NCBI GenBank assembly: GCA_964058845.1 | Contig: CAXKVR010000211.1 | Location: 1-64,000 of the forward strand | Length of the DNA: 64,000 nucleotides | Reading direction: 5' to 3' | Source: Carex sylvatica | Taxonomy: Eukaryota > Streptophyta > Magnoliopsida > Poales > Cyperaceae | Shown: positions 11,166 to 51,414 of the stretch, piece after piece | Layout of the letters: every line of letters starts with the position of its first letter | How positions within the stretch are numbered: the first letter of the stretch is position 1 | Made by a program: the position numbers and the translations under genes | Notes under the pieces: generated by a model | Told to the model about the DNA's origin: nothing | What the model saw: only the letters and a program-made list of their open reading frames with translations | The model's database searches: none

Positions 11166-12284
11166 TAGGGGTTTGCTAACCGGTACGGGCCGGGCGGTCT
11201 GGGTATATCCGGGGTCGGGCACGGGTACGGGTCGGGTACGGGTATCACGGGTATACGGGTACCACGGGCTGGGTATCACGGATATTTTTTTCAAAACCCT
11301 TGTCCTGCCCGTCTTATATCCGTGCCCGTGGTACCCTTGACGGGCAGGACGGTCCGAGTACCCAGTCCGGTTTTTTTTTTTTTTTTTTTTTTTCTCTCTG
11401 TTCTTTTTTTTCTCTGTTTTTTTTCTGTTTTTTTCTTTCTGTTTTTTTTTCTGTTTTTTTTTTTACGGTGTTGTACAAATATCATTACGTGTTTATAATT
11501 CGACTTTTAAAATCAAAATAGCTCAATATCAAATAGTGTATATAAATAAATAAAATTTGTAACTTATATATAAAAATTATTCATGCGAAAATTTGTATAT
11601 TTATTCGGCTAAATACAAATGTATTTATTTATTTCTTTACACGAGTCATTTTATTTTATTTTCAAATTCTCATTCTAATTATATAGTTTCATAATTTATT
11701 TATATCTCGAAATTTTTAGTTTACATTTTAAATTGATAATATATTTTTTAAACGTTCATTTATTTTTAATAGGTTAAATAAAATATAAATCAAAAATATA
11801 ATTAAATCAAAAACTTTAAAACAATAAATAAAAAAACATAATTTAAAAAACAGAAATTAAAAAAATAGAATTTAAAAAGCAGAATTTAAAAAACAGAAAT
11901 TAAAAAACGAAATTAAAAAAACAGAATTTCAAAAACAGAATTAAAAGAACAGAATTTAAAAAATAGAAATTAAAAAACAGAATAAAAAAAAAGGGGGGGA
12001 AATTTAAAATTTTTGAAATTAAAAAAAAACGGGTACGGGCACGGGTACGGGCACGGGTACGGTATACGGGCACGGGCACTAGGGTATACGGGTACGGGTA
12101 ATCTGGTCCGGGTATGGTCGAGTTTTTTTCCAAAAGGGCGTACCCTACCCGTTTTATGTCCGTACCCGTGTACCCGTGTACCCATTTACCCGACCTATAC
12201 CCAGGCTCGGACACGGGTACCCCGGGTAGCGGGCACGGGCGGATCAGATACGGGAGGTCCGGGTCGGATTTTTGCAACCCACTG
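11166..12284. mobile_element. Non-autonomous hAT element with CGGGTA repeats, short form
   Basis: Ends TAGGGGTTTGC and GCAACCCACTG (reverse complement CAGTGGGTTGC). The flank CATCCAGC is duplicated at 11158-11165 and 12285-12292, an 8-bp target duplication typical of hAT. Inside each end are arrays of GGGTACGGG/CACGGGTACGGG words in facing orientations. Then come a T-rich tract with CTGTTTTTTT, a core that begins GGTGTTGTACAAATAT and is shared with 46920-47240, and an A-rich tract with AAAAAACAGAAATT. No transposase is encoded. It looks like an internally deleted relative of 46250-49748. Confidence 0.88.
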
Positions 12285-12292
12285 CATCCAGC

Positions 12293-15200
12293 TGCTCCCG
12301 AATTTTTTATTAAATTTTGGGGCACTGACAACTACCCATTTGTATTTAATTCATTAGTTAACTGAAATGCAGCTGTCGAGGTCTGCTGAATTCATTTGTT
12401 TAATTCAGTTGATTTTATCGAAGTTCAGATTTAGTAATTATGTAATTGCATAATTAAATCTTCCTCTCCATATATCTTTCTATGCACTAAATCGTTATAT
12501 ATGTTTTTTCACAGACCATTAAGCTATTACTAGCATCAATTGATCTGCTGTTATCAACTTGAGCCTAATGTTTGTGTTTTGCTTAGTTCCCATTTTTATG
12601 TTACCTTTTATATAATACAAAATGTCGTCTTCTGATTTATTTTTTGCAACAAAATAAGATCCGATTGTATGTTTCAAAGATAGTTTTTCTTTTATTGGAA
12701 ATTTTTTTTTAAAATCTTTTTTGCGAGTTAGTTGTTTGAGATTATTATTATATTTACCTTCAATTGTGTTTTCAACACCGCACATATATAGTATGCAATC
12801 AATTAGCAATCAATTAATAGTCTATGGGATTATCAACAATTTAATACCTCACATAACATGCACTCAATTGCTACCTAATGAGATTCTCAACAAGTACATA
12901 TGATATAAAATTTCTTTTAATATCATCAATCTTCTGGTACAAGTAGACACATGCATTTTACTGCACAGATCAGATATCCACATCACATATCTGATCTTTA
13001 CTTTGTTTCTTTTTATTCAGCTACCTTCAACTGTTAATTGTTGTTCGAAGAAGAGAACATCTGTAAAACGTTAATTAACACATTTCCATCAAAACAGATA
13101 ATTTAGAGATGGCAAAAGAAGACCTTAATATCAAACTCGATCTGAGATGACTGAAGTAATGAATTAATTTAGCCCAAAACTAAAATGACCTGAAACTCGA
13201 TTTGTCTGAATTGAAACAACTAGAAACCTAAGAAGACTCGAAGCCGGAGGACTTTAATTAAGAAACTTGAATGAACTGAAACTCAAAAAATAACTAAAAC
13301 CTGAATTAATTGGATGGTTGAAACCTTAAATTGAAGGTAGAATGAACCAGGCGATGGTCTTAAATATGCTGAAGTCCAATCAATAGAGAAGAAAGGGTGC
13401 TAATTTGATCAATTGAAGAAAATGCATCTGGATTAAATGAAGAAAGGATGAAGCGTTCAGATTAAATGAAGGAAGCAAATTCGAATTGCTCTGTCCTCTG
13501 CCACTGCTGGCTCATAAAATTAAGGAGGTAGCTGTTATAGTACCACTACTGGCTCCTTTATTTTTTGTAGAACTCAACACTTCCAAAATTTCTATTGAAA
13601 AATTGTTAACAATTAACTTCTTTTCATTAATCCCCTTAAAGAATAAGAGAGATATTAGAAAATGTTGTTAATTAATTTGTATGTTCTCTTTTTTGCACTA
13701 CTTGATTAATCTAATAATATGATGCACGTCGGTGCTCTCTCGCACAGAATCGTGATTTTTAATTGAAAACCATCAAGTAAGAGGTCACTGCATTTTAGCC
13801 TCTGATTTGCCCACAAGAAAAATCGCTCATCGCAAAAATGTGTTTTTCGCTGAATCAATCTGAGCTGCACGTCAATCCAGATCCCCGACGTCTCGAACTA
13901 AAAAATAGTTCATGCGTATTTTTTTATTAGTTCATTAGTTTGCACTCCAATAGCACCCTCAAATGGTTTGTACACCTAAGTTCCTTAAATTGCTGGAATA
14001 AATTCGAAAAAAAAAAATATAAGACAAAATAATCTGGTTGGCAAAAAATTGTAAAAATAATTATAACTACCAAATAAGTAATTTGGATTTAATGAAGACT
14101 TTTTAAAGAATTTTTCTCTATTTAATTACATGTTATACAGATTTTCCTGAATTATTACAAAACACAAGAAACACAATCCAGGTTGGAAAATAAGGGAAAA
14201 AAATAGAACTTGTAAAAATTTAACATGAATTAAATCATATCGGCATGACACGACACGTCTACATAACACTATCTTCCCTTTTTCTCAAAGAATGCTTAGG
14301 CTATGCTCCAGAAACCACTCGCGCAGAGGAAAGGGACATGAGGTAAAGGAAAGAATGTGACCACGTGTTACTCCCTCTACACCTCAAATCTGGAGGACGG
14401 ATTTCAAAGGTTTTGTACTTCCTCTCCTCTCTGATCTGAGTATGTGTCATCTTCCTTTCCTTTAATGAAAGATTTCTTCTCTTTTCTCGAGCACACCCTT
14501 AGTATTTCATGAGAGGCCTTTGACCTTTGGTCCACCAGCAGGGTTGACATCTTTGTAATGGCTGTAAAAAATAAATGAGTTGGGAAGAGAAACAGGCCAG
14601 CAATGAAAATATCTTGGTCCACCAACTCGATCGAGCTGGAAAGAAAATAAAACGAGGACAGGATATCTTGGGCCGATGCGAAAGAGGCAATTTTTGGAGC
14701 AGCTTGTCCTCCAAGGTAGCTATAGCTAGCTCCTGGGTGTTGATTTGGTCAACTCAACTATTCGAATTCTGTTGTTAATTTAGCTCAAAACGCTGTCAAT
14801 TAATCAGCACATGAAAGGAGCCTTTGACAGGGCCAGGGTTATATTAGTTGAATTAGCTAAACAAACTACAATTAACAAGCACATATTTGTACCTTTTTCG
14901 TGTATTAAGAGAGCAATATAAATCCAAATAAAATCAGAAAGTAATATAAATTTAATAAAATTCAGCCAAAAAAAAAAATTCGAAAACTTCTGACTTTCCA
15001 AAATCTGATACAATTAGAACCTGAGATTTTGCAAGACTATAACCAGCGATTGAATACTCTGTTGAGGTGCTGCCGATTTCGAGTTAAGCGAGGTCGAGAG
15101 CACGAGAGAGAGAGGCGGAAGCGATAGGCGCGCAGTGGAGAGAGAGAGGAGGAATCAACGAGAAGGGCTTTGAGAGAGGGAGCAGAATGGAAGGAGAGGC

Positions 15201-15320
15201 GGGATTCGGGGGTTCGTCGACGAGAACGGCGGTTGCAACGTAGAGACAAACGCGAGAGAGAGAGAAAATGGCAGGTTAGGGTTTGGTGCGAGCTTTGGCG
15301 CCAGGGCTTTTTTTCGGAAT
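12293..15320. other. Intergenic DNA with MITE debris
   Basis: Mostly AT-rich. At 13104 the sequence TAGAGATGGCAAAAGAAG resembles a hAT terminus and is followed by repeated CTGAAACTCGA-like words, but I find no matching right end or target duplication. Around 14290-14505 weak inverted similarity (CTTAGGCTATGCTC against TAAGGGTGTGCTC) suggests an old MITE. An open frame at 12519-12809 on the minus strand resembles nothing I recognise. No gene can be supported. Confidence 0.45.
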
Positions 15321-15324
15321 AACA

Positions 15325-15483
15325 ATTTCAGCGACCGGCGACAGCACCGGCAGCTGATACGGTCGCAGAAAATGGTTGTCGTCTCAGAAGTCTGATTTTC
15401 TTTTTTCTGAAAAATCACTTTTAGTGACCGACGACAGCACCAGCCGCTGATACCAGTCGCTGAAAATAGTTTCTGTTGTAGTG
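15325..15483. mobile_element. CACTA-like transposon terminus
   Basis: The bases end TTTCTGTTGTAGTG, which reads CACTACAACAGAAA on the other strand, the form of CACTA (En/Spm) ends. Just inside are two direct units of about 100 bp containing GCGACAGCACC and GCTGATAC, resembling subterminal repeats. The opposite end was not found, so extent and class are uncertain. Confidence 0.5.
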
Positions 15484-15629
15484 CTTGTATATTATATAGT
15501 GAGTATTTTCTTACTAATAATGGATTTCATACTAATAATAGCGTCTTAGTCAATTCCAATTAATACAAGAAATTATTAGCACTATTTAGAAAATAATTAA
15601 TTGGATTCTAACTATCTATTCATCTGCAG

Positions 15630-16044
15630 TTTGATATGGGTGATGTTCTTGTTAACGGTCAATCTACTGGAAATTCTTAAATTTTTGCCATCTTAAATGT
15701 GTATTCAATTTAGTTATTATCAATCTTTATCTTTGTTATTTTACCAATTTGTTTGATAATTGTATTTACATGCTCTGTCATCAGGTTTCTGCTCAGGTGG
15801 GTGTTCAACCATAGCTGATTCTAGAACCTCCTTGATTGCGGGTCCCACGGTATTTTCTTTATTAACAGTTGATGCTAATTTTTTTTTTTTTTTTAATGTT
15901 TTGTTTAACTGAGGAGATTGTTTCTTGTAGTCTGTTATTACTGAGATAAATCAGAAGATTGGAGCAGCTCGGGTGGTGAGTCAAGAGTACAAAACTGTAG
16001 TGGCACAATATGGCCAACAGATTTTGGACATGCTAGTAGCACAG
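15630..16044 (+). pseudogene. Phytepsin-type aspartic protease pseudogene fragment
   Basis: Three exon-like pieces are recognisable: 15630-15669 (FDMGDVLVNGQSTG), 15785-15849 (FCSGGCSTIADSRTSLIAGPT) and 15931-16044 ([20 protein letters not shown].. and on to [13 protein letters not shown]). Together they match the second catalytic motif of plant pepsin-like proteases and the start of the saposin-like plant-specific insert. The catalytic-site signature DSGTS reads DSRTS, a conserved insert cysteine is Tyr (SQEYK for SQECK), and the first donor has lost its GT (ACTG|GAAATT). The rest of the gene is absent. The intact enzyme is vacuolar or secreted; this copy is non-functional. Confidence 0.82.
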
Positions 16045-18324: not shown

Positions 18325-18332
18325 GTGCAAAG

Positions 18333-18940
18333 CATGGAAGGAAATATCGACCGATACCGATTCGGATCGGCTGATACGTATTGGTATCGGCTAAGACTGA
18401 TTTGATACTGGTCCAATACTCGTGAATTTTGTGTTTTTCATCCAATTTCTGTCATTCTGGTCATTATTCGTCTGAAAACTTGAACCCGTGATTGATTAAA
18501 TAGAGTATCAACTATGAATCCGTGATTGGTTAAATAGTGTATCAACTATATATGCACATGCGGAAAATATAGATATGAAGATGTTAATAATCATTCATTT
18601 GGGTTTACAATGTTTTTTATTTTTTTTGTTCTGGACAACAATATCTCTATTTTTATCATAATACAGACGACGATGAAGTGATCTAGCCAGCACGACAAAG
18701 TTTTTAGTATTGAAAGAGTGTGTTTATAGTTTTAATGCTTGTATTATATTGTATTAGTGGATTATTTGATTGTAATCATTTATCTAAGTATAAATTACTG
18801 ACAAATTATTTTTATCAATTTTTTTTTATTTGTTTAGTGGAAAACAATCTTTTGGCCAAAAAGTCCAATTTTTCTATCTGAATCGGCCGATACCGGCCGA
18901 TACACCGATCCCGATTCCGAAACCAATATTTCCTTCTATG
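18333..18940. mobile_element. Non-autonomous hAT-like element with CCGATACCGA repeats
   Basis: Ends CATGGAAGGAAATAT at 18333 and the reverse complement of CATAGAAGGAAATAT ending at 18940. The 8-bp target duplication is GTGCAAAG (18325-18332 and 18941-18948). Subterminal words GACCGATACCGATTCGG, GGTATCGGCT and CCGATACCGGCCGATAC fill both ends. The interior is AT-rich and non-coding. Confidence 0.85.
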
Positions 18941-21890: not shown

Positions 21891-23077
21891 TTTAGAAAAG
21901 AGTTGTGCAACAAATAAAGAACACTGTAAAACTGGTAGAAAATATTAAATGCAGAACATGTCTGAGAAAATCGAACTCCCAAGTGAATTTAGATTTTGTA
22001 ATTTTTATATGCAGTTATTGAGAAATATATATATTTTTTTTTTAAAATTTGGATTGTGGGGACTACCCTCAAAAATATTTTTTAATTTATTTCCCAACTT
22101 TTCATGTCAAATAAAAGGCAAGTTTTTTTTTGGTATGGATTTCTTTTTATATGTTGAAGTTAGTATTGTTAACTTATTTTGAGACCCAATTTTTATTTTT
22201 GGTGTATTGAACCCTAAGAATGCATGTTCTGCAATTATAGTGATCTCAGCTCAGTTATTGCAAATTCATTTGTAAATTATGTATTGATACTTACAAATTT
22301 TGTAATCAAACTGTTACTTCCTTTTCTTATTATGTAATATTATTTTTTGTTAGATCTATTAATTGTATTGACTTCATGGTAAACATGATAGTTAATTTAA
22401 ATAGAAAAATTCTCCTAGCATGAATCAGTAACTGTTTTAAATCGATATAGGAGAGAGTTCGTTTTAGGAGGGTTCGAAAATGAATTTAAATTAAGATTCA
22501 AATATATTTGACATTTTATCAAGTATGAATTCAAATTATATACCGTATCTAAATTCCTATATATATATATCAAGTATTTGAATATCTGGATCCGTATTTG
22601 AATATTTAACGAATACGGATATGTATTTCTAATATTGTCTCATACGGATGCGAATATGGATATTTTTCTAACAAATACGGATATATATACATAACTAATT
22701 TAAGATCTAAGTATTTCATTTTTTATAAGATTTATATTTCTTGAAATATTTTGATCTACAATATGAAAATAATTAGTGATTAATTTTTATCGTCATGATA
22801 TAATTTTTTTAACTTATATTTGTTATGAAAATATTTGGCAGCCATTTTTCATGAGAATAGGTGATATTTAAATATCTTAATTATTTATGTATTCATATCT
22901 GTATTTTTTTTAGTTCAATTTATATCCATATTCAAAATTGTTCATATTCAATTTATTTGTTAAGAGTAAGGCTTGCGACTCTGCCTCTCTTCTGATCCGT
23001 CACTTGTTTTAAAAAACTTCACGGGCCAGGGAGTACTGCTGCTTAATTTAAGCCACATATATGATGGCTTGGGTTGG

Positions 23078-23124
23078 GTTTAGGGTTTTGGGTTTAGGAT
23101 TTAGGGTTTAGGGTTTAGGGTTCT
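23078..23124 (+). repeat. Interstitial telomere-like repeat
   Basis: Several units of TTTAGGG or one-base variants (GTTTAGGGTTTTGGGTTTAG and so on) in a row. The unit is the plant telomere repeat, but the tract is only about 45 bp and imperfect. Confidence 0.8.
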
Positions 23125-27000: not shown

Positions 27001-30000
27001 AAGAGAATGAAAAAAATAGTAACTTATAAATTCTGTTTTCTTTAATTTTCATTACCTCCTATCTGTAGTTTACAATTAAACAACGAATATATTATTATAA
27101 TTTTTCAAAAAAATCTTAGTAAACAAATATTTTTCTATAATATATATAGAGGTATATATATATTAAATTAAACAATGAATCTAATATAAAATCGATTGTT
27201 CCTAAAGTCCCGTGCAAGTAAGTCGTTTTTCATTTTTCATAGTCCAAAAAGTCAATCCAAACCATTAGATGTGATCTCTATATTAAAATGTGCTTCTGGT
27301 TTTACGATTTTGTTAAACCATCGTTGGATCAGCGATTTTCAAAGTGGCTTAATAAATAGTAAAAAAAATCAGAAAAATATAAAATTTAATCTCCAAGTAC
27401 ATTTTAATACAGAGATCACATCTAATGGTTTGGATCGACTTTTTGGACTTTGAAAATTAAAAAATAACTTAGTTGCACGGGACCTCAGGAACAATCGATT
27501 TGATATTAGCCAACTCCTATATATATATATACAGAGAGAGAGAGAGAGATGAGCTACGGTGAGCTATAGAGTAAAACACGTTTATGCTCCACACAATCTC
27601 TTTATTTTCAAAGTTCAAATAGCCGATTCGAATTCCAACATGTTCTTCATAATAAAATATGCTTGGAAACTAAATTTTACATTTTTTTGGAATTTTTTTA
27701 CTATTTATTAAGCCACTTTGAAAATCTGAAAATCCGACTGAACAGTGAAAACAGTAAAAATTTCTGGACCACTGGATCGGCAATTTTCAAAGTCACTTAA
27801 TAAATAGTAATAAAATTTCGAAAAATATAAAATTTGGTCTCCAAGCACATTTCAATATCGACATCATGTTGAGTGATTCGGATCAGTTGTTTGAATTTTC
27901 AAAATGAATTTTTTTTGCCATGGAGTAAAAAATCTATGTTACTCTATAGCTTACCATAGCTCATCTCTCTATATATATATTGTTTTAAACCAAGGGAGGC
28001 TTAAGTGCCACCCTGCCCTTGATTCCTAAATACAGTACTTTACGCATTCTCCATATATATATATATATCTACATATGTCGATATCAAACTTCTAACCATG
28101 TTAATGACAATCATGCAACGTTATATCTAACTCCATGAAACATTGACAAACAACAAAATATCTATTTTTCAATCTTTTCTGTAACAAATAATTTGTTGCC
28201 AAAAACTTTGTAATTGAGTTTCCACAATTTCTTCTATAATTAACGATGATAACATATGTAAGCCACGAAGAATTGCTGGTCATCAAAAAAATATATTGCT
28301 GTACCTTTTTCTAAGGTAAAACTTAATTTTAATTCCTTTCAGCGAAGATCAGAGCATTCTACACACCTGAGCGTACACTTACATTTTCGCCAAATGGCAC
28401 AAGCATTCAATGATATACAAATATAAAGAAGTTTGTTTACAAAATTACTTAAATATGACTTCTCTTTTCGACTTGTTCTCCCAAGAGAAACAAAATGAAA
28501 ATGGTTTAGTAATATCGAATTATTCCCTGCATGTTCAACACGGTCTATCTTCTACAAACTATACATGTTCTATAATATCTAGCTAAATGTTAATAAAATC
28601 TAACTATCTATTAAGAGATACCAAATAATAGTTAGGGCCAACATATTTGTTTAAATTAATTTATATTATTTAAAAAATATATTTTTATTAAATCGATTAT
28701 TTGAAAGCTAGCCGTAAAATAACTTTTGCACTATTGTACTCTGTTCTATTTGTTTTGTTTCAGTTGGCAAGGTATGTTAAGGAGGAGTGCATGAATACGG
28801 AAAATGTTATTTAGTTGCGCTGCGATCGAAATGCTACAGAAATTGTCTAAGTTAATTTGTAGATGGGTAAGAATTTCTAACAGACAATATTTCTTTGAGG
28901 TACAATCCATGACCTTTATGCATTAATTAGAAGAAACTAAATTTCATGCAAATATTCTTATATAGAGTAAAATCTATTTGGTATTATCATTGGAAATTAC
29001 TTCTTCTTTTTTTATCTTGGGAGAATGGTGGAATTAAGGAAGTAAAAAGGAGATCATGTGTGTACCGGACACTGATTGAATTGGGGGAGAGTTATAAATT
29101 TGGTTTGAATGTGAGACTGAGCTGAACCAAAAAAATACATCATGGCCTTTTTTATACCTGACAAGTAGCTTCAAAGTTAGAACTGAAAAAGGATGTACCT
29201 TTGCACGAGCTCTTCAAGGCATTTCTCAGCTCTGTCCTCCATTGTTCCACCTCTACCTTTCGGGATGAATTCTTCAGCCATCCACATTCCGGTAAGGTGC
29301 CTTCCCGAAATTCTATAATCTTCGGGAAAAGCAGCAAAATAAAGAAAACATGATTTGAGATGGTCTGGCAAGTCTTCGTAACTCTTGGCTAGAATCTGCA
29401 TGCACTTCTCCCCATCTTCATTTCTCCAATCCATGGTCTCCTCCACTTTGCTCCAAGCACTGTAGGTGCGATCTCTCCTTGTGAGGATACCACCTAGCAC
29501 AATCAATGCCAAGGGTAGCCCACCGCATTTTTTCGTTAAACTTTTGGCGATTTCCAAGAGATCACCAGGGTAGTTCTCAGGTTCTATATGTTGTTGAAAA
29601 GCCCTTCTGAAGAGGAGAGCAAGACCCTCAGCGCCGGTTAGGTAATTAATTTTATGTTCATCTGTATTGCAGTCAGCCGCTTTAGCAACATCCAGCAATC
29701 TGGTGGTAATTATCACACGGCTCTCATTGTTCTGATCGGGTAATGCTTTTTCCAATTGCTCCCAAAGATTAATGTCCCAGACATCATCTAGGATAATTAA
29801 GTATCTCTTGCATCTCAACGAGCTCTTGAGCTTCAGCACTAAATCCCCATCTGTTATGGGTGGATTTTTATTTTTCATTTGAGGTTCAATTGGGTAAAGA
29901 ATTTCTCTCCAGAGATCATTTAAATCGTACTTTTGAGAAATTGACAGCCATGCCCTACAATGGAAGTGCCTCTCCAATTCCGCACTGCATGTGGTTACAA

Positions 30001-31487
30001 GAATACATTGGTTACATCAAGAAAAAAACAGCCCAAAGAGAATACATTTATTGTACAATTTTTTTTCCATGTAATAGGATTGATTAATTATCTGTATTCT
30101 TAAGAAGATTTGGACCACATAATGTAAGGAGAAGACTAATTTAATCAAGTCTTTGTGCAAAAATTACCATGAAGCTAAGAAAATTACCATCTCTTAAATT
30201 CTATTAACCAAAACAGAGTAACTAATTTTTATTAAGGCGTAAATATTACAGTTATTATTTATGGAAAAAATTATCAGAATCATATGGGTGCAGTTGAGTA
30301 AAATTTCAGTATATTTTTTCATTAAACATTTCAGTATATTTATGTGCATGTTTACATATCGTCATAATTTAATTTTTCTCGATTCAGTTAAATTACTAAA
30401 CAATCCCTTTATATAACCCAGTGTTGCAAATAATGGTATGAGCTCGTCAAACAGACAAAGTACTGCCAAGCGATTAATTGGGAATAATGGGGAATAATCG
30501 GCCGATTAGTCGGGAAAAGCCTTAACGGTTTGGTCACCGCCAACGATTAATCGGCCAATTATTCCCGATTATTGCCGATTTAGTTAATTTGTTAAACAGG
30601 GATTTTGTTCACCATTAAAAGGAAGTGACAGGATGCTCTAGTTAATAAATACGCATGAGGTAATTAATTACTAACAGTAATGAAGATTCATGACAAAAAC
30701 TCCTTCCTTGCGTGATAAAAAGAAATCTAAACAAATGATCTAATTAATTTGGACAGTGAGTTCTTACAAACGAGTTGGTTTGGGATTTAATTTTCTTGTT
30801 AACCAAATCTAAAAAAAGAAATCACAAACTTTTACGCAATTCATATAAATTAAAACATAGATAGCACATGCACCTTTTGTATACTTTTTGGGCCAAGGTG
30901 GTTTTGCCGAGGCCGCCAGTGCCCACAATCGAGAGCACCGTGCGCCTTGAAATGCTGCTATCAAGCAGCTGCTTAATAATCTTGGCCTTGTCATCCTCAA
31001 GGCCAACAACTTCTGGATCATCAACCTTATCAGAAGGATCTAAATCATCAACATCATCATCGAGAGCTCCAAGCTTTTCATGAATTCCGAACTGGATTCC
31101 ACGCTTCAAAATCCGATTGAGTTTTTGTGTGATACCTTCGAGCTCTTTACGCAGGCCGTGCTTGTATGTTTTATAGTTTCTTGTAACATCCGTCCTCTTT
31201 CTTTTGAGCCAGTTGGAACTTTCTGGACTGGTTTGTTCAATGTTAACCCGGAAGGTATCAATGACACTATTTATTTTGTCGCCAATTTCTTTGACCTGGT
31301 TTAGCCACTCTGTTACCAATTCACTTGTGTTTCGCTTGGAATTGGCATCTCTTAGCAAAGCATGGATCAACCGAAGTTCTTGCTGCATCTGTTCAATCTG
31401 CTCACGCACATCCTTCAGTTCTTGAGCTTTATTAGTCAAGAAATCAGCAAGCTTGCCCAACACATAGCTCACAGTTGCCTCTGCCAT
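24089..31487 (-). CDS. CC-NBS-LRR immune receptor, copy 2, complete (three exons)
   Basis: The gene reads as complement(join(24089..25412, 29199..29984, 30874..31487)). The exons are 1324, 786 and 614 nt, 2724 nt in total, and join in one frame to give 907 residues plus stop. Splice sites are AAAAG|GTGCAT to ATGCAG|T, and CAAAG|GTACAT to CTGTAG|G. Domains: Rx-type coiled coil (about 1-125, EDVID motif degenerate), P-loop GTGGLGKTT (189-197), kinase-2 LIILDDVWD (267-275), RNBS-B (293-300), GLPLAL (360-365), RNBS-D CFLYFAAFPED (417-427), MHD (486-488, MHDLLRDLAI), then irregular LRRs to the C-terminus. Length and motif order are normal for an RPP8/RPP13-like CNL, a nucleotide-switch receptor that triggers defence. 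Intron 1 is 889 nt; intron 2 is 3786 nt and holds two MITEs. No premature stop is seen. The LRR exon joins in exact phase, but no cDNA is available to prove it. Confidence 0.9.
27149..27516. mobile_element. Fold-back MITE in CNL intron 2 (first of two)
   Basis: Inverted repeats include CTAATATAAAATCGATTGTT at 27181 against CTAATATCAAATCGATTGTT reading in from 27509, followed by CCCGTGCAA on both sides. The core carries TTGGATCAGCGATTTTCAAA and GTGGCTTAATAAATAG, shared with the elements at 27546 and 35561. It sits in TATATA-rich sequence. The left end carries about 25 extra bases after AGAGGT. Confidence 0.75.
27546..27968. mobile_element. Fold-back MITE in CNL intron 2 (second of two)
   Basis: Ends AGAGATGAGCTACGGTGAGC and, from the right, AGAGATGAGCTATGGTAAGC, each running on into TATAGAGTAA. 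The core has the same CACTTAATAAATAGTA and ATATAAAATTTGGTCTCC blocks as its neighbour. It lies between a GA run and a TATATA run. Confidence 0.8.
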
Positions 31488-32919
31488 GTATTTTCGATTG
31501 TGGGAAGGTCTTTCTTTCTCTCTTTTTTTTCCTCTTTTGCTGGGAGGGGGTTGAAAGTGATTTACCTTTGTTATTTGTTCTTGGGGATGATTAATAGATG
31601 TACATGAGACGGTTATATTTAGAGACTTAGAGAGCTTGATTTAAGTCTAAATTAGACAAAAAGTAAAACATAAAGGATAAGTTAGCGTACTAACCACGGT
31701 GCACTGTAGTTAGTGTATCTTTGAAAAATAAATGAAGAGATCATAGGCATCTTTCTTTGCTTCATTTTACTTGGCTCTTCTTCACTCACAACCTATCCGT
31801 ACTCATCCAACAGTGATTCTGTAACAGATAAGCGAGACCTTTCCTTTTTCTTTTTTAAGGGTAAAGCGATACCTTTTTATATAATCGGTACATGCTTTCC
31901 CATTTCTCGCACTACCTTTTGCTGAGTGGAATTCCTTTTTTTTTTGCTGAGTGAAACCTTTTGTGCGGTACATGCTTTTCCATTTCTCCCACCACTTTTG
32001 CTGAGTGGAACTGTTTTTTTGCGGGGTTCGGTACTAACTTTTCTATTTCTCCGACTATTTTGCTGGGCAAAATACCTTTTTTTTCGAGATTCGGTACTTG
32101 CTTTCTAATTTCACGCACCTTCTTTGCTGCGTGGAACCGCTTCTATGCTAATCATGAGTTCAATGCAAATGATGGTGTTGGACCGCTTTTCTATCATCAA
32201 ACTACTATTTATTGATTTGAATAGAATTAAGGTCTTGTTAACCCTTAAGTTCACCAAGCTACTTGATGAATTCAAATCTAAAATTCGTCGAACTAGTTTT
32301 AAATGACGAATCCGAATTGTTGAAACCTGCCTATCTTACAAGTGATGTGTCTTCATATGAAAATTTTAAACATTCGAATTAATTTAGTATAAAATCAATC
32401 GGTCAAAATTAAAAGGTTAATAAATTAATTTTAATGCATTCATTTTTTGAATGTTTTTTTTATCGCTTGACTTTTATACTAAATTAATTCGAATGTTTAA
32501 AATTTTCACATGTAGACACATCACTCGTAAGGTATGTGGGTTACAACTGTTCGGACTTGTTATTTAAAACCAATTTGATGGGTTTTGGACTCGAGTTCAT
32601 CAACGGACTTGGTGAACTTAATTAAGACATCCTAGTTCTACTCGATTAATTTTGTTATTCTATGAAAAAAAAAAATAGCGAAATATGATAGATTTTTGGA
32701 GTTGTACTTGTCAATTTCTCTTGATAAATACATCACACCCTAACTTTGTTCAAATCATACATTAGAGAATTAAACTTTTGAACTAATACTATTTTCTACT
32801 ACACATTGATGATTGAACTAATACTATTTTTTACTACACGTTGATGATTGGTTGTAATTTGTTTTAATTTTTCTGTTGTTTTTCATTAAGGTGTACTCAC
32901 TAATAGTCACTATCAGTTT
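28812..32919. repeat. Segmental duplication A, right copy
   Basis: Direct copy of 1-4299, offset by about 28.8 kb. It keeps a longer intron 1 (segment 30520-30810 is absent from the left copy). It has extra tandem units of a roughly 60 bp motif containing TTTGCTGAGTGGAA upstream of the gene (31915-32110) and a 40 bp tandem duplication near 32778-32850. Similarity begins at TAGTTGCGCTGCGATCG and ends at CTATCAGTTT. Confidence 0.93.
31613..31621 (-). promoter_or_regulatory. Candidate TATA box of CNL copy 2
   Basis: On the minus strand TAAATATAA lies 126 bases upstream of the ATG at 31487, matching copy 1. A pyrimidine-rich stretch (31508-31540 on the plus strand) falls in what would be the 5' leader. 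This is a motif match only. Confidence 0.35.
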
Positions 32920-34379: not shown

Positions 34380-34995
34380 TATGTTAGTCGGATACTTCAT
34401 TTTAGATACGTATCGGATACCGATACGAGTTCGATACGGCCACGATACGTATCCGATACGTCAGCTGGCGTATCAGCTGACATGGCGTATCTCTAAACTG
34501 CAAATACGGTCACGATGTGTTGAAACCCATTCTGATACGTCTGGATACGTGTTGAAACAGTTCCGATACGTCTGGATACATGTTGAAACAGTTCCGTTAC
34601 GACTGAATACGTTGGACTATCAGGATACTAGTGACCTGCACTCATGAGCCGCGCATACACCAAACTCATGAACCGCCCTAGCCTAAACTCACACTGATTA
34701 ATTTTTTTCCTTCCTGCAAGCCTCGAACTTGGGATGTCCCAACTGAGTATCAAAATTACAAACCAACAGGACCGATCATAACTTGTGTTATATTCTAACA
34801 AATAATCAATATAATTGAAACTTTCATTCAGCTTTTATTTTTTGTTTATAAATTTAATTTAAGTTGTGATTATCTAAATAAAATATATAAAATAATAATA
34901 AAATAATATATATAATAGACGTATCGTATCTGAGATTTTTAAAAATTATCGTATCGTATTCGATACGATACTCGTACCCGTATTCATGCAACATA
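34380..34995. mobile_element. Probable hAT-like element with CGATACG repeats
   Basis: The left end TATGTTAGTCGGATAC and, from the right, TATGTTGCATGAATACGGG are similar. Between them are many GATACGTATC, CGATACGA and GTCTGGATACGTGTTG words. No matching 8-bp flanks were found, so the class rests on architecture shared with the other word-repeat elements in the window. Confidence 0.5.
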
Positions 34996-36419: not shown

Positions 36420-37090
36420 TAAATATATGCAACTACAACTAGCCGTTGCAATTTAGTCTATATATTTTTTACTTTATAAACTCTCTAAACAGATAAGAGT
36501 ATAATTTGAAAAATACCACTCGCGGTTATGCCGAGTATCTTTGGATGGTGAATCTCGAATTATTTGAGGATTATTTTATGATATGTAAGTGATGGATCTT
36601 CTGATATCCAATGCAAGTATATGAAATTTGTGAATTTCTTTGATTAAAATATATTAAAAACATAAGTTTGGAGCCTACTTTCTAGAAGTCTATTTCTTTG
36701 TCAGGTAGATTGCTTTTTAATTCATTCAGTGCTTGTTAAAAACATTGCAGATCGATCAGTTTTATAATTATTAAATTATTTTATAATTTCAAATAAGTAA
36801 GGGGCTAAATATAAACGTTTCAGTAATGTGTCATCAAAATAGAATTGTAAGAGACATAGTGACAAGATTCGCAAATTATATCCAAATAATTTATTTTTTT
36901 GGTGATGCCGAACTGAATGTCGAATTATATATTCGGTTGACTGAACTTTGACCGAATTAAACCCGAATAATTCACGATATTTACAAACTTTTTCTGAATT
37001 TTACAAATTTTTCACGCAATTTTCCCGAATTTTTCCCATAATATATATTTTTATCTCTTGCAGCACTGAGATCTGTGATCCGAATAATTC
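36420..37090. repeat. Direct duplication C, left copy
   Basis: Matches 40150-40830: the block from CAACTAGCCGTTGCAATTTA through AGTTTGGAGCCTACTTTCTA to the CCGAATTAT-rich element. Similarity fades inside that element, so its right end is lost here. Confidence 0.85.
36855..37090. mobile_element. Truncated hAT-like element with CCGAATTAT repeats
   Basis: The same left junction as at 40562: flank GTAAGAGA (36847-36854) followed by CATAGTGACAAGATTCGC. Words CCCGAATAATTC and CCGAATTATACCCG follow. No right end with a repeated flank is found, because the duplicated block stops inside the element. Confidence 0.65.
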
Positions 37091-37540
37091 TAAATCATTT
37101 CCGAATTATACCCGAATTATTCCCGAATCACGAATTATAAACTGTTTCAACAATCATTAATTTATCAAAAATATTGTACAAAAAAATATTGGATGTATTT
37201 TTCAAAATCCAAAAAACCTATCTGAGTCATTGACATTATCTATATATAAAAAATATTATAAGAAGTTAAATTAACATTATTAAAAAAAAATACTATGTTT
37301 TTGGAAATTGGAAGAGAGAAAATCCATCAATTTCAGAAAATCTAAACTATTGGACAGCCATGAATTTCTCCCCATAGAAAAATAAAAAGAAATATAAAAT
37401 TTAATTTTCTCCCATACAAAAAGTTTTGCTATGCATACACACATTCATCCGTACTATGACTTCATATCTCTATTTTCAAAGTTCAAAGAATTGATATAAA
37501 CCGCTTGACATGATCTCTATAGAAAAATGAGGAGGGTTCA

Positions 37541-38142: not shown

Positions 38143-38147
38143 GTTCA

Positions 38148-40149: not shown

Positions 40150-40830
40150 ATATACTACTACAACTAGCCGTTGCAATTTAGTCTATATATATTTTTTGTA
40201 AGCTCTCTAAACAGATAAGAGTGTCATTTGAAAAATACCACTCGGTTATGCTGAGTATTTTTGGATGGTGAATCTCGAATTTGAGGATTATCTTATGATA
40301 TGTTAGTCATGGATCTTATATCCAATGTAAGTATATGAAATTTATGGATTTGTTCGATTAAAATATATTAAAAAAAAAAGTTTGGAGCCTACTTTCTAGA
40401 AGCCTATTTCTTTGTCAGGTAGATTGCTTTTTAGTTCATTCAGTGCTTGTTAAAAACATTGCATAGTTTTATAATTATTAAATTATTTTATAATTTCAAA
40501 TAAGTGAGGGGCTAAATGTAAACGTTTCAGTAATGTATCATCAAAATAGAGCGGTAAGAGACATAATGATAAGATTCGCGTATTATATCCGAATAATTTG
40601 TTTTTTTGGTGATGCCGAACTGAACGCCGAATTATATATTTAGTTGACTGAACTTTGACCAAATTAAACCCGAATAATTTACGAATTTTACGAACTTTTT
40701 CTAAATTTTACAGATTTTTCACAATTTTTTTTCAAAATTTTCTCATAATATATATATTTTTTATGTTTTGCAAGACTGAGATCTCTGATTCAAATAATTT
40801 CAAATTATATCCAAATTATTTTTGAATTAC
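40150..40830. repeat. Direct duplication C, right copy
   Basis: Direct copy of 36420-37090 about 3.7 kb away, with small indels. The hAT-like element at its right side is complete here. Confidence 0.85.
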
Positions 40831-40884
40831 AAATTTTTGATCTCGCCGAATCGAACCCGAATAATTCATTTGTCACGTACTATG
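40562..40884. mobile_element. Non-autonomous hAT-like element with CGAATTATT repeats
   Basis: Flanked by GTAAGAGA (40554-40561 and 40885-40892), an 8-bp target duplication. Ends CATAATGATAAGATTCGC and, from the right, CATAGTACGTGACAAATG. Interior words include CCGAATAATT, GCCGAACTGAACGCCGAA and CGAACCCGAATAATTC. No coding. Confidence 0.8.
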
Positions 40885-40892
40885 GTAAGAGA

Positions 40893-41429: not shown

Positions 41430-41437
41430 GTATACCA

Positions 41438-41897
41438 TAGTGTATTGAAAAGACCCGCCCGGTCCAGGACCAAACCGTCCGAACCGTAGACTAGTTCGGA
41501 CCATGTTGGACTTCTGGATTGGATCGAACTAATCCAAGGGACGGGTCTAGCAAGAATTTCAACCGAATTTTTCAACTAAATCCGCCCAAATCCGTTCCGC
41601 ACTAACCTGAGACCAGCCTAGACCCGAACCAGACCAAACTCGGACCGAACCGTGACCCAGAACGGACTAAACCACACAGTCCAGTTTCGGTCAGAAATAG
41701 TCACTATTTAAAAAAAAAAAAAAAAAAAACAGATTCTAACCCGGACCCGACCTTGGACCATTATTCTAGCACAGGTTTGAGCCAACTCCTCCAAATTAAA
41801 CCTACCGGATCCGAAACGTGCTAACCCATATACTCGTTGGATCCTCGGACCATGAAAACTGTGGACCGGCCCGACCCGACCCGTTTGCAATTCACTA
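41438..41897. mobile_element. Non-autonomous hAT element with GGACC/CCGAACC repeats
   Basis: Ends TAGTGTATTGAAAAGACCCG and, from the right, TAGTGAATTGCAAACGGGTC. The 8-bp target duplication is GTATACCA (41430-41437 and 41898-41905). The interior is dense in GGACC, CCGAACC, CCGACCC and related words, with one A-run in the middle. No coding. Confidence 0.88.
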
Positions 41898-44539: not shown

Positions 44540-44704
44540 CTTTTGCCATTCAATTAAGCATTCCAACAAACATCTGGCATTCAGAACTCATGCATTATAA
44601 TGCAATCATGAATCAGGACATATATATAACGAGATATAGGAGGAAAACATCTCAACTTCAAGGAAATAATCTTTAGATGCCACTGCTCTAATTACCACAA
44701 TGGT

Positions 44705-45729: not shown

Positions 45730-45852
45730 GAAAATCTGATCTCAGAATCAACAAGGTGTGTCCCGGGTCCTAGAAGTGAACCTTCAGCTTCAGACTCTCA
45801 AGAAAGGAGATCTATCGTGCACAGTCTCTCTCTCTCTCTCATCTAACAATAC

Positions 45853-45904
<52 letters not shown>

Positions 45905-46249
45905 TCTCTTCAATTTGTGGCCTACCACCGGAGAGAAACCCTCATTGTTCTACCACTTCTAAAACCCTAGCGCAAACTGATTCTTTTTTTTTCTCTCTCT
46001 CTCTACGGGGCTGACTCACTTCTTTTTTGTCGGATCCGGGTGGTGTTGAATTCGTATCCCCTCAGGTTAACGCATCTCAAACCTCAAATAATCCTGACCC
46101 TGTCATCCCGACAGCTGAGAGTACATCTGAGCCGTCCGTTTCAATTGTGTTGAATCAGGTATCTGGGAGGATATGGATCCAGTGTTGTTCGGGTGAGCTT
46201 GGTTTGGCTCCTCACTTGCGCTAAGTGCCCGCTTATAATGTATCTTGCC
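45730..46249 (-). promoter_or_regulatory. F-box family 5' region with telo-box and CT/GA microsatellite
   Basis: Similar to 56925-57190 (CAAGGTGTGTCCCGG, CTTCAGCTTCAGACTCTCAA). On the minus strand it has TAGGGTTTT (telo-box) at 45961-45969 and a long GA run (45820-45900) in the presumed leader. The upstream part, with TGGGC site II-like words, now lies at 49757-49775, split off by the hAT element 46250-49748. Confidence 0.55.
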
Positions 46250-47639
46250 TAGAGGTTTGCACCCGGACCGGGTTCGGGCGGACCGGGTTTACCCGGGGTC
46301 GGGTACGGGTTTGGGTCGGGGACGGGTAGGTCGGGTAAACGGGTATCTCGGGTCGGGTATACTCGGGTATAATTTTCAAAAACCGTACCCTACCCGAGTT
46401 TTACCCGTGCCCGTGGTACCCGGCACGGGTAGGGCGGTCCGGGTATGGTACCCGGTCCGGGTCGGGTACCCGGTCCGGTCCGGTTTTTTTTTTTTTCCTG
46501 TTTTTTTTTTTTTCTATTTTTCTCTGGGTTTTTTGTCTGTTTTTTTCTCGGTTTTTTTGTCTTTTTTTTTTCAGTTTTTTTTCCTTTTTTTATGTTTTGT
46601 TTTATGTTTTGTTTTATGTTTTATTTTTCTGGTTTTTTTTTCTGTTTTAATTTTTCTGTTTTTTTTCTGTTTTTTTTTCTGTTTTTTTTTCTGTTTTTTT
46701 TTCTGTTTTTTTTTTCTCTATTTTTTTCTGTTTTATTTTTCTGGTTTTTTTTTCTGTTTTTTTTTTCTGTTTTTTTTTCTGTTTTTTTTTTCTGTTTTTT
46801 TTTTCTGTTTTTTTTTTCTGTTTTTTTTTCTGTTTTTTTTTCTGTTTTTTTTTTCTGTTTTTTTTTCTGTTTTTTTTTTCTGTTTTTTTTTTCTGTTTTT
46901 TTTTCTTTTTTTTTTACGGTATTTTTTTACGGTGTTGTACGAATATTATTACATGTTTATAATTCGACTTTTAAAATCAAAATAGTTAAATATCAAATAG
47001 TGTATATAAATAAATAAAATTTGTAACTTATATATAAAAAATATTCATGCGAAAATTTGTATATTTATTCGGCTAAATACAAATGTATTTATTTATTTCT
47101 TTACACCAGTCATTTTATTTTATTTTCAAATTTTCATTCTAATTATATAGTTTCATAATTTATTTATATCTATAATATATTTTATAAACGTTCATTTATT
47201 TTTAATAGGTTACATAAAATATAAATCAAAAATATAATTAAATCTTTTACTTTAAAAGAATAAAATAAAAATAAAATTTTTCTTAAATCAATTACTTTAA
47301 AACAATAAAATATGAATTCAGTTAGAATTAATAATATTAATAGGTCCGTTTGCATAAATTCGAATTCTTCTTTAAAATGAATATTTATATTAAAAATTCT
47401 TCATTAGTAATTCTTCTTTAAAATGAATTTTTTTGGAAAATACAGGGCTATTCCAATACATCACCAAAACAATTCAAGTATAGACTCTTTTGCACGTGCA
47501 TCCCTTGGGTCGGTGTTCTGATACCAATTGTTTTGGTGATGTACTAGAATTGCCATGGATTCTCTTTGCGAGTAGGCACCGTAGACTGTCTTGAGCTGTT
47601 TATGTTGCCCTCCAAATCTACAAGTGTATGTTTAGTTAG

Positions 47640-48730
47640 TTTGAGAATAGGCTATTTAAAAATAAATCTAACCTATTTTTTTAACATATTAAAAATAAAA
47701 CTAACCTATTTTAAAAAACAGAAAATAAAAAACAGAAATTAAAAAACAGAAATAAAAAACAGAAATAAAAAACAGAAATAAAAAAACAGAAATTAAAAAA
47801 CAGAAATTAAACTAACCTATTTTAAAAGATCTATGAAAAATAAATCTAACATATTCAAAATAAATATAATCACTTCACATATTCAAATCTATAAAACTAA
47901 CCTATTTTAAAAAACAGAAAATTAAAAACAGAAATTAAAAAACAGAAATTAAAAACAGAAATTAAAGAACAGAAAATAAAAAACAGAAATTAAACTAACC
48001 TATTTTAAAAGACCTATGAAAAATAAATCCGAATTTTGAAAAATAAATCTAACCTATTCAAAACAAATATAATCACTCCACATATTCAAATCTATAAAAC
48101 TAACCTATTTTAAAAAACAGAAATAAAAAAACAGAAATTAAAGAACAGAAAATAAAAAACAGAAAATAAAAAACAGAAATTAAACTAACCTATTTTAAAA
48201 GACCTATGAAAAATAAATCCGAATTTTGAAAAATAAATCTAACCTATTCAAAACAAATATAATCACTCCACATATTCAAATCTATAAAACTAACCTATTT
48301 TAAAAAACAGAAATAAAAAAACAGAAAATAAAAAACAGAAATTAAACTAACCTATTTTAAAAGACCTATGAAAAATAAATCCGAATTTTGAAAAATAAAT
48401 CTAACCTATTCAAAACAAATATAATCACTCCACATATTCAAATCTATAAAACTAACCTATTTTAAAAAACAGAAATAAAAAAACAGAAAATAAAAAACAG
48501 AAATTAAACTAACCTATTTTAAAAGACCTATTAAAAATAAATTCGAATTTTGAAAAATAAATCTAATCTATTCAAAACAAATATAATCACTCCACATATT
48601 CAAATCTATAAAACTAACCTATTTTAAAAAACCTATTAAAATTAAATCCGAATTTTGAAAAATAAATCTAACCTATTCAAAACAAATATAATCACTTCAC
48701 ATATTCAAATCTATAAAACTAATCTATTTT
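47640..48730. repeat. Tandem array of about 110-190 bp units inside the hAT element
   Basis: About six units, each with CTAACCTATTTTAAAAGACC, TCCGAATTTTGAAAAATAAA and ATAATCACTCCACATATTCA. Between them are variable numbers of AAAAAACAGAAAT words. Unit starts near 47818, 47999, 48190, 48352, 48514 and 48620 give spacings of 181, 191, 162, 162 and about 106. Confidence 0.85.
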
Positions 48731-49399
48731 AAAAAACAGAAAATTAAAAAACAGAAATTAAAAAACAGAAATTAAAAAACAGAAATTAAAAAACAGAATT
48801 TAAAAAACAGAAATTAAAAAACAGAATTTCAAAAACAGAAATTAAAAACAAATATAATTATTTGACATATTCAAATCTAACATAAACTAAATAAATCTAA
48901 CATATTCAATAAATCTAACAAATCTAATTACTTAATAAATTTAACAAACCTAACAAATGACAAATCTAATTACTTAATATTCAATAAATCAAGCATAAAC
49001 TAAATGTACTCTACAAAAATAAATTAATCTAAAATGAAATAAATGTTACCTTTAAATCTCGCGAAAATTTTTTGCGGGAGGTGACGAACTTTGTAATTCC
49101 GTTTGCGGATTTGTGTAATGAATTAAATTTACAATTATATTTTTTTTTTAAACAATAAATTAAAAAATAGTGAATAATTAAATTGGAGAATTGAGATTGA
49201 GAGAATGAGAGATGAGAGAATGAGTGTGAATTTTTGGTGAGGAAGATGGGGTATTTAAAGAAAATATTGGGAGGGAATAAAATTTGAAAAAAAAAAAAAA
49301 CCACGGCTGAGTTGACTCGGGTGGGTCCGGCCGGTCGGGTTTGATTAGACCAGTCCGGGCTCGGTTGAACCGGCGGGAATTGAATTCAAAAAAATTTGA

Positions 49400-49590
49400 A
49401 TTCAACAGGTCGGGTCGGGTCAGATCGGGTTCGGGTCGGGTCGGGTCCAGTCCGGGTCGGGTCGGGTCATGTCGGGTCGGGTCGGGTCGGGACGGGTCGG
49501 GTCGGGGTCGGGTCCGGGTCCGGGTCGGGTAGGTCGGGTCGGGTCGGGTCGGGTCGGGTCGGGTCGGGTCGGGTCGGGTCGGGTCGGGCT
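49400..49590. repeat. (CGGGT)n minisatellite in the hAT element
   Basis: More than 30 pentamers CGGGT with occasional variants (CGGGTC, CGGGTTC). The plus strand has closely spaced GGG triplets, a pattern compatible with G-quadruplexes. Confidence 0.9.
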
Positions 49591-49756
49591 TAAATCGGAC
49601 CGGGTTTGGTCGGGTTTTGAACCAAATAATCATACCCTACCCGTTTTTTACCCGTACCCGTGTACCCGTTTACCCGACCCATACCCGGGTAACGGGCACG
49701 GGCGGGTACGGGTCGGGTCCGACCCGGGCGGGTAAAAGCAAACCACTAATCTTGCC

Positions 49757-50000
49757 CAACCCATTAAGATTTATCATAAAAGAATTGTGCAACGAATAAA
49801 GATTTTCTCATGACACAGGCAACGTACGGATGCAGAGCATGTTGAACTCAGAAAACCAAAGTCTTGAATGAAGTCCACGATGGAAAGTGAATTGCAATTT
49901 TGTGATTTATATATGCAGTTACTAAAAAAATATTTTCTAAATGAATAGTTTGGGTTTTTGTGGAAAGAATTATTATTTTTTTAATTCAGGTTGTTGAGAG
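49757..50000. other. Displaced upstream part of the F-box family repeat
   Basis: GCCCAACCCATTAAGATTT and the following AAAGAATTGTGCAACGAATA continue the family sequence that stops at 46249. They match 21875-21920 and 57195-57265. No coding. Confidence 0.6.
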
Positions 50001-50240
50001 CATTGTGATAAATGAATAGTTCGAGTTCGGTTTGATAGGAGTAAAAGTTCGTAATTCGAGAATAATTCAGATATAATTTAGAGGATTAGATACTACAAGA
50101 AAGAAAAATTCATATTTTTTTTCTCGAATAAAATGTATAATGCATTTTTTTGCGTTTTATTCTGTATTCAGTTCAGAAACATTAAAAATACAAATTATAT
50201 GTAAATTATATGTTTATTATTCGCGTACCATGTTACAATG
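50001..50240. mobile_element. Non-autonomous hAT-like element, 240 bp
   Basis: The 8-bp target duplication is GTTGAGAG (49993-50000 and 50241-50248). Ends CATTGTGATAAATGAATAG and, from the right, CATTGTAACATGGTACGCG. Words GTTCGAGTTCGG, CGTAATTCGAGAATAATTC place it near the elements at 40562 and 36855. Confidence 0.8.
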
Positions 50241-50514
50241 GTTGAGAGTACCCTCCAAAATATATTTTTTAATTTGTTTTCCAACTATTCATGTCAAATA
50301 AAAGCAACGGAGGGATCAAAATAATAAGTCTTTTTGTTCATTAAAATTAAACCAAAATATGTACAAAGAATCGAGGATAGGATCGGTAATAATCGTATTT
50401 GTTTAGGAGCTGTATTATGTTTTGCATATACAAAAAATACATGTTGTGTTGCGTGGGTTTTATCATGTCATGACACGTGTTGTTACGTGGCGAGTCGTTT
50501 CACGTGTTGTTACC

Positions 50515-50920
50515 TTGGGGGGATACGGACTCAATTTAAGTGACATGTCGTCTTGTATGTTTAAAAAAAAAAAAAAAGGACGGACTCAATTTAAGTGACA
50601 TGTCGTCTTAATTCATATCAAACTCAATCCGGTGCATGTTACCGGAGGTGCAATTAAAAACAATGGACAGCCCAGATCAATTTAATTCATGTCAAACTCA
50701 ATCCGGTGCATGTTGAGGGTCTGCTTTGAAATTCGTGCCAAGTAAAATGAACAATCCAGATTTATCACTTGCACCTCAGGTACCTGGGGTGATGCGGATT
50801 CACTTAAATTGGTATCTCTTAACACTTTGTAGAATGTCACGTGGTATCCCTTAGATATTGTGAACTGATGACTGGCCTTCTCGAATAAAAATTCTGCACT
50901 CATTGGTATCTCTTAACACC
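50515..50920. repeat. Nested short direct and inverted repeats
   Basis: GGACTCAATTTAAGTGACAT occurs at about 50527 and 50582. TCAAACTCAATCCGGTGCAT occurs at about 50619 and 50691. GGTATCTCTTAACAC occurs at about 50812 and 50905. ACCGGAGGTGCAATT at 50640 opposes CACTTGCACCTCAGGT at 50765. This looks like overlapping MITE insertions; boundaries are not resolved. Confidence 0.55.
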
Positions 50921-50934
50921 TGGTTCATGCCAGC

Positions 50935-51414
50935 TAGAGTGGCAAAAATGGCACGCTGGAACCGGCTCCGTCACGGAACGGCACGGCTCTGGCACGGCAC
51001 GGCACGGCACGGATGTCAGATACGTGCTGTGCCTCGCCTGTCCCGTGCTGTGATCAATTATTAGCAAAGAAGACACGGCACGGCACGGAACACGGCACGA
51101 CACGGCACGGCACGGAACACGGCACGACACGGCACGACATGGAACGGGAGACACGGAAGATACGGAATTGGCTATATATTACTATATTTAGATAAATGTC
51201 AGTTATATTCCGATCCTCTTCTCTTTTTAGATACGGGATTGGCACGGCATGGCACGATTTGGTCACGGCACGCGAGTCACGGCGTGACTCGCGTGCCATG
51301 ACCATTCGCGTGCCGTGACCACCCCTCATAATTTTGGTCACGGTACAGCACGTGACCAAAGTCACGGCGTGTTAGTCACGGCACAGCATGGCACGGCACG
51401 TTTTTTCCACACTA
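50935..51414. mobile_element. Non-autonomous hAT element with GGCAC repeats
   Basis: Ends TAGAGTGGCAAAAATGGCAC and, from the right, TAGTGTGGAAAAAACGTGCC. The 8-bp target duplication is ATGCCAGC (50927-50934 and 51415-51422). The interior is built of GGCAC/GGAAC/GACAC pentamers in tandem and in inverted order (51230-51330). No coding; the open frames are repeat artefacts. Confidence 0.9.

What the first reader, a model, noticed from the sequence alone, without database searches (positions are those of the whole stretch)
11166..51414. A set of hAT-type non-autonomous elements, each written in its own short repeated word
Six elements have an 8-bp target duplication and ends in the hAT style (TAGNG.. 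or CAT..): 11166-12284, 18333-18940, 40562-40884, 41438-41897, 46250-49748 and 50935-51414, plus 50001-50240. Each is filled by one word family: CGGGTA, CCGATACC, CGAATTATT, GGACC or GGCAC. Known hAT elements carry short subterminal transposase-binding repeats (for example the AAACGG motifs of Ac), so the words could be amplified binding sites, one per transposase lineage. Extension of such words over most of the element, with a different word in each family, is unusual and could represent a class of elements evolving by binding-site expansion.
Basis: partly seen in the sequence, partly recalled or inferred. Interest (0 to 1): 0.78.

Follow-up and report, generated by a model that had tools for sequence, protein, structure and literature searches.

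The report
Small hAT transposons with repeated ends
Seven small jumping-gene relatives in this plant DNA are genuine hAT-type insertions whose ends carry short repeated words like those that hAT transposases bind; for one family a longer transposase-bearing parent with the same ends was found, so the pattern is real but of a known kind.

Summary
The seven elements are real. Each has a perfect 8-bp duplication exactly at the stated ends. Copies of two families elsewhere in the genome have duplications in 9 of 9 and 16 of 16 two-ended loci; five end-only reads in the other three families matched 6-8 of 8. Pooled target sites favour T at 2 and A at 7. They form five families: 11166 and 46250 are one, 40562 and 50001 are relatives.

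The word claim is only partly right. Words cover 9-16% of six elements and 36% of 50935. In CGGGTA elements they occupy only the two ends, in similar number in ten transposase-bearing ends and nine miniatures. In 12 CCGATA copies 224 of 235 word sites lie within 100 bp of an end. Small copies look 'filled' because little but the ends is left.

Other hAT transposase loci show other end words. Partners for 41438 are suggested by position; for the remaining three families none is established. Ordinary Ac/Ds-type biology, well displayed.

The parts
46250..49748 (-). Family A (CGGGTA): internally deleted hAT element, TSD ATCTTGCC, ends TAGAGGTTTGC/TAGTGGTTTGC; strand is that of the transposase gene in the parent
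   Evidence: TSD, ends; same end blocks in transposase-bearing loci
46250..46480 (+). Word-rich end of family A (3' side of the transposase gene in the parent); 17 CGGGT[AC]/complement sites in the first 300 bp
49318..49748 (+). Other word-rich end of family A, with a GGTCG array at 49408-49588
11166..12284 (.). Second, diverged copy of family A, TSD CATCCAGC; words only at the two ends (6 and 13 CGGGT[AC] sites)
18333..18940 (.). Family B (CCGATA): hAT-type miniature, TSD GTGCAAAG, ends CATGGAAGGAAATAT/CATAGAAGGAAATAT; words only in the terminal 60 bp
40562..40884 (.). Family C (CGAAT): TSD GTAAGAGA, ends CATAATG/CATAGTA, weak terminal repeat
36855..37109 (.). Second copy of family C, 84% over query 1-258; by eye its left flank resembles that of 40562, so probably one insertion duplicated with its flank
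   Evidence: sequences
50001..50240 (.). Relative of family C, TSD GTTGAGAG, ends CATTGTGATAA/CATTGTAACAT
41438..41897 (.). Family D (GGACC / CGGGTC): TSD GTATACCA, ends TAGTGTATTGAAAA/TAGTGAATTGCAAA
50935..51414 (.). Family E (CACGGCA): TSD ATGCCAGC, ends TAGAGTGGCAAAAA/TAGTGTGGAAAAAA; word sites along much of the element

Best explanation
These are ordinary non-autonomous hAT transposons of five families in a plant genome, carrying at their ends the subterminal repeats by which a transposase of their own lineage recognises them. The transposase, made by a longer relative, is inferred to bind several copies of the word near the ends through its N-terminal zinc finger, to bring the ends together, to cut at the terminal inverted repeats and to insert the element with an 8-bp staggered cut. 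Shown here: ends, duplications, copies and, for family A, a transposase gene inside elements with the same end blocks. Inferred: that the words are the binding sites, and that B, C, D and E are or were moved by transposases of their own. In family A the miniatures look word-rich because internal deletion left little but the ends, not because the words spread through the element.
For: TSD in 7 of 7. Family A: 9 of 30 fetched loci gave a recognised pair of ends, all 9 with perfect 8-bp TSDs. Family B: 16 of 30 gave a pair (one is the window copy), 12 with 8/8 and 4 with 7/8; they stand for about 12 independent insertions. End-only reads of five copies: C147 (C) 8/8, C48 (D) 6/8, C930 and C34 (E) 6/8 each with alike flanks, probably one insertion, C40 (E) 7/8. 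T2/A7 33 of 62 positions in 31 TSDs, 0 of 20000 shuffles as high. 16 of 40 scored A ends have a PF05699 match within 4 kb, on the strand facing the end; one (C99) is a different transposase, 40% identical, beside a miniature. 12 of the other 15 also have the other end's block upstream. hAT-like_RNase-H and Dimer_Tnp_hAT in two of three C458 pieces. CGGGT[AC] sites at that end: 14-18 in 10 transposase-bearing ends, 15-18 in 9 miniatures, none further in up to 1.6 kb of the former.
Against: No partner established for B, C, D or E. Of listed end-pattern hits, PF05699 lies on the inner side within 8 kb for 1 of 52 (B), 0 of 61 (C), 2 of 32 (D) and 1 of 100 listed of 166 (E), against about 1.0, 1.1, 0.6 and 1.9 expected by chance. 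B and C have CAT ends, unlike the TAG ends of family A. Words of 40562 and 50001 are not beyond chance taken alone. 11166, the diverged A copy, has only 6 sites at its left end. Binding was not tested. The C458 transposase is in overlapping pieces of different frames, and its far terminus and TSD were not read.
Confidence: 0.88

Rival explanations
1. Binding-site expansion: copies with more words compete better for the transposase, so words have spread over most of the element in each family.
For: 50935 has 36% word coverage with sites along much of its length and tandem 27-bp units. The right end of 46250 has 39 CGGGT[AC] sites against 20-32 in nine miniatures and 13 in 11166 (sums of bins), with a 35-copy pentamer run.
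Against: At the other end the number is alike in transposase copies (14-18) and miniatures (15-18). In family B 224 of 235 word sites in 12 copies are within 100 bp of an end. A pentamer run can grow by replication slippage without selection. The right end of a transposase-bearing copy was not read, so that comparison is missing.
Confidence: 0.12
2. The words are only simple-sequence drift (slippage) inside hAT elements and have no role in transposition.
For: Pentamer and hexamer arrays are slippage-prone; word statistics of 18333, 40562 and 50001 taken alone are within chance.
Against: Words recur at the ends across copies, and the 3' side of 21 of 30 transposase loci has a word cluster reached in at most 1 of 100 resampled sequences, against 4 of 30 (loci that behave alike) on the 5' side (2 of the 21 are A-type elements). 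Transposases of Ac, Tag1, Tol2 and Herves bind such repeats, and they are needed for excision or transposition in Ac and Tol2 (PMC3143072, PMC10368747, PMC3260210; passages seen).
Confidence: 0.1
3. The CAT-ended families B and C are not hAT but another superfamily with 8-bp duplications, such as P.
For: Ends read CAT...ATG; no hAT partner established. That P elements have 8-bp duplications and CA ends is recalled.
Against: B target sites follow the pattern by eye, T at 2 in 9 and A at 7 in 8 of 12 (TSDs; only the pooled set was tested); terminal clusters of a short word resemble those beside hAT transposase loci. No search for P transposase was made.
Confidence: 0.13

Closest known systems
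Maize Ac/Ds
   Same: 8-bp TSD, 11-bp TIR, hexamer AAACGG in the terminal 200 bp bound by the transposase, internal-deletion derivatives and short Ds1 types (PMC3260210, passages seen)
   Different: Other word in each family; up to 36% word coverage in 50935; no sequence comparison with Ac was made
Arabidopsis Tag1
   Same: hAT; its transposase recognises subterminal motifs AAACCC and TGACCC (PMC3143072, passages seen); family D words GACCC/GGACC resemble the latter
   Different: Resemblance of words only; no membership test made
Hermes (house fly)
   Same: Many short subterminal repeats as putative BED-domain sites; about 220 bp of each end needed in cells (PMC10368747, passages seen)
   Different: Insect element, AAGT/AAGC motif; mutating inner left-end repeats left about 70% activity
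Rice nDart1/aDart1
   Same: Plant non-autonomous element moved by an autonomous partner (PMC4585910, search listing with start of abstract); hAT membership and GC-rich ends are recalled
   Different: Not compared by sequence

Membership tests
hAT superfamily (all five families) | 8-bp target-site duplication | tested here: met
   7 of 7 in the window; A 9 of 9, B 12 at 8/8 and 4 at 7/8; outside the window C 1 copy 8/8, D 1 copy 6/8, E 6/8, 6/8 and 7/8
hAT superfamily (all five families) | Target-site preference nTnnnnAn (recalled) | tested here: met
   pooled 31 TSDs; not tested per family; where two copies of a TSD differed one was used
hAT superfamily (all five families) | Short TIR | tested here: met
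   8-11 of 12 matches in six elements; 40562 only 5 of 12, so weak for that copy
hAT, family A | Longer relative with hAT transposase and the same end blocks | tested here: met
hAT, family D | Longer relative with hAT transposase and the same ends | tested here: inconclusive
   2 of 32 pattern hits (C101, C16) have PF05699 about 0.8 kb inside with the gene pointing to the end, as in A; 0.06 expected by chance for 0.3-2 kb.
hAT, families B, C, E | Longer relative with hAT transposase and the same ends | tested here: inconclusive
   B one candidate (C285), whose transposase scores like the A type; C none; E one with the gene pointing away; E list showed 100 of 166 places
hAT, family A | N-terminal BED zinc finger | tested here: inconclusive
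   Pfam reports no family in the first C458 piece at E 0.01; a finger-like C/H pattern is seen by eye only, and the frame is broken
hAT | Words are transposase-binding sites | not testable with these tools
   needs a binding assay

The most novel reading that the evidence does not exclude
In this genome each hAT lineage has diverged to its own short, often CpG-bearing end word, like a private address label, and some miniatures (family E, right end of family A) have multiplied that label beyond what their transposase needs, so that words and transposase DNA-binding domains are co-diverging pairs readable side by side in one genome.
Probability: 0.15. Interest if true: 0.5.

Novelty: new member of a known kind. 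Interest (0 to 1): 0.27.

Why it matters
One genome offers several hAT lineages with different end words, and one family with long transposase-bearing and miniature members sharing ends. That makes the pairing of transposase DNA-binding domain and DNA word testable side by side. It also shows that 'word-filled' miniatures can arise simply by deletion that leaves the two ends.

Tried and rejected
Filling by words as a general property: rejected for families A and B by position counts. Partner search by closeness of element copies and of end-pattern hits to PF05699 matches: clear for A only, suggestive for D. In one search the other families gave 0 of 39 (B), 2 of 42 rows at one place (E, C273), 1 of 9 (D, C48) and 1 of 39 (C, C240); C273 holds both ends of a miniature beside the match and was not taken as a partner, and the others were not followed. 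C285 (B end 1.6 kb from a PF05699 match, gene pointing to the end, 0.10 expected) is left open: the match scores like the A-type transposases, but the place was not read. C118 (E, gene pointing away) is within chance. L035 (C99) and L058 (C691) are A-type elements beside another transposase. A GATACG word array near 34389-34612 has no recognised ends and no BLAST match to the 30 transposase loci. Rfam: no match at gathering threshold. A search with one end of 41438 listed only the window and C65. The CCCTA/CCCTG terminus beside word clusters was seen by motif and by eye, without a control. Nine paper searches in the open-licence library listed no title or abstract start about word-filled plant hAT miniatures as a class; subscription papers and Repbase are not covered. 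Passages of PMC2872659 (coral MITEs) gave nothing to the point.
Full report
What was checked. The window is G000:C211:1-64000 of an assembly of 63,982,083 bases in 950 contigs; NB-ARC, LRR and F-box domains in it indicate a plant. All seven intervals were read. A scan of the window for such repeats found 5 of the 7 among 9 candidates, control 3.

Families. 11166 and 46250 share both ends and an interior block (68-86% identity by stretch); 40562 and 50001 match over 75 and 40 bases. So there are five families: A CGGGTA (11166, 46250), B CCGATA (18333), C CGAAT (40562, 50001, and a further copy at 36855), D GGACC/CGGGTC (41438), E CACGGCA (50935).

Copies and duplications. Genome searches listed 41 (A end), 51 (B), 96 (E), 10 (D) and 40 (C) matches; these count pieces, include the window's own, and for A, B, C and E only the best 40 candidates were scored. 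End patterns: B 52 places, control 0; E 166, control 1; C 61, control 0; D 32, control 0. Family A: 9 of 30 loci gave a recognised pair of ends, all 9 with perfect duplications; in the other 21 no pair was recognised in the stretch fetched, among them L007, L016 and L025, which show a right end but no left end by my criterion. Family B: 16 of 30 gave a pair, 12 with 8/8 and 4 with 7/8; L061 (the window copy) to L063 share one duplication sequence, L078 and L079 are alike, and L067 and L070 share theirs, so there are about 12 independent insertions. Pooled over 31 insertions, T at 2 or A at 7 is found at 33 of 62 positions, reached in 0 of 20000 letter shuffles.

Partner of family A. At C458, L091 and L004 hold reading frames with hAT-like_RNase-H and Dimer_Tnp_hAT domains; the first of three pieces gave no Pfam family. 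The pieces overlap in different frames. The downstream end matches the first 504 bp of 46250 at 89%. Among 40 scored A ends, 16 have a PF05699 match within 4 kb of the 231-bp end block: 14 at 0.95-1.09 kb, C99 at 1.21 and C503 at 1.81 kb, all on the strand facing the end. C99 is a different transposase beside a miniature. Ten of 30 fetched loci carry all or part of the C-terminal exon at 92-100% identity to C458, itself included. For 12 of the 15 remaining loci the block next to the other end of 46250 lies upstream in the right orientation: 11 give elements of about 5.5-8.7 kb, C45 about 16 kb, which may hold insertions; 3 of 15 gave none, but that search scored 40 of 168 candidates. So 46250-49748 is a deletion derivative of such an element. 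The other terminus of C458 itself was not read, so its TSD is not shown.

Where the words are. In 10 transposase-bearing ends CGGGT[AC] sites number 14-18, all within 300 bp of the end; in nine miniatures (607-801 bp) the same end has 15-18 and the other end 20-32; the diverged 11166 has 6 and 13. The middle of 46250 is made largely of T-rich and AACAG arrays instead. In 12 family B copies (three duplicates and the window copy left out) there are 120 word sites in the first 100 bp, 104 in the last 100, and 11 in all the rest. E is the exception, with 36% coverage. Coverage of 40562, 50001, 41438 and 50935 was counted in the window copies only.

Other lineages. In 30 transposase loci the 3' side has a word cluster reached in at most 1 of 100 resampled sequences in 21, the 5' side in 4 (L041, L045, L049 and L051, which behave alike). 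Two of the 21 (L035, L058) are A-type elements lying there, and others are related, so the independent number is smaller. Read outward, some clusters end at a hAT-like CCCTA terminus: CGGATA (L032, itself 6 in 100), GGATACG (L043), AGCTCG (L034, L037), AACCGA (L038), ATACGAA (L040), ACTCGG (L047); no control was made for that terminus. Of the 21 top words, 9 contain CpG (7 of 19 without the A-type two), against 13% of window 6-mers.

Other partners. With listed end hits against the 150 PF05699 matches, D has two ends with the gene pointing to the end 0.8 kb inside (0.06 expected), B one at 1.6 kb (0.10 expected; the transposase scores like the A type), C none, and E one pointing away.

How it works. 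Subterminal repeats bound by the transposase are reported for Ac, Tag1, Tol2 and Herves, and BED domains bind such repeats in Hermes (PMC3143072, PMC10368747, PMC3260210; passages seen). The same role is inferred here. In Hermes, mutation of inner left-end repeats left about 70% of activity, so not every word need matter.

Verdict.

Noticed in passing
window 34389-34612: Array of GATACG/CGTATC words, partly in 31-bp tandem units, without recognised transposon ends; the word resembles that of the transposase locus L043, but BLAST found no alignment.
   Followed up: partly
L031-L060, 3' side of hAT transposase domains: Top end words contain CpG in 9 of 21 significant loci (7 of 19 without two A-type elements) against 13% of window 6-mers; each of the five window families also has a CpG-containing word. 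CpG methylation could modulate binding.
   Followed up: partly
window 46489-46928 and 47711-48848: Interior of 46250 holds T-rich CTG-containing and AACAG-containing arrays that look roughly complementary; similar arrays flank the gene in the C458 copy (L091, L092, L004).
   Followed up: partly
window 343-2616 and 29177-31640: Two very similar NB-ARC disease-resistance gene stretches about 29 kb apart (by eye from the translations), pointing to a segmental duplication.
   Followed up: partly
window 36780-37109 and 40490-40884: Family C copies with similar flanks and the same 8 bases before the element: probably one insertion duplicated with its surroundings (by eye).
   Followed up: partly
window 6549-9061: Reading frames of which one has a SWIM zinc finger, resembling a Mutator-like transposase by eye; another piece (7628-8341) gave no Pfam family.
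   Followed up: partly
window 23076-23122: Short array of GGGTTTA, the plant telomere-type repeat (name recalled), in the interior of the contig.
   Followed up: no
window 54889-58725: Perfect 14-base inverted ends with a palindromic 8-base repeat (AACATGTT); may be an inverted repeat rather than an insertion.
   Followed up: no
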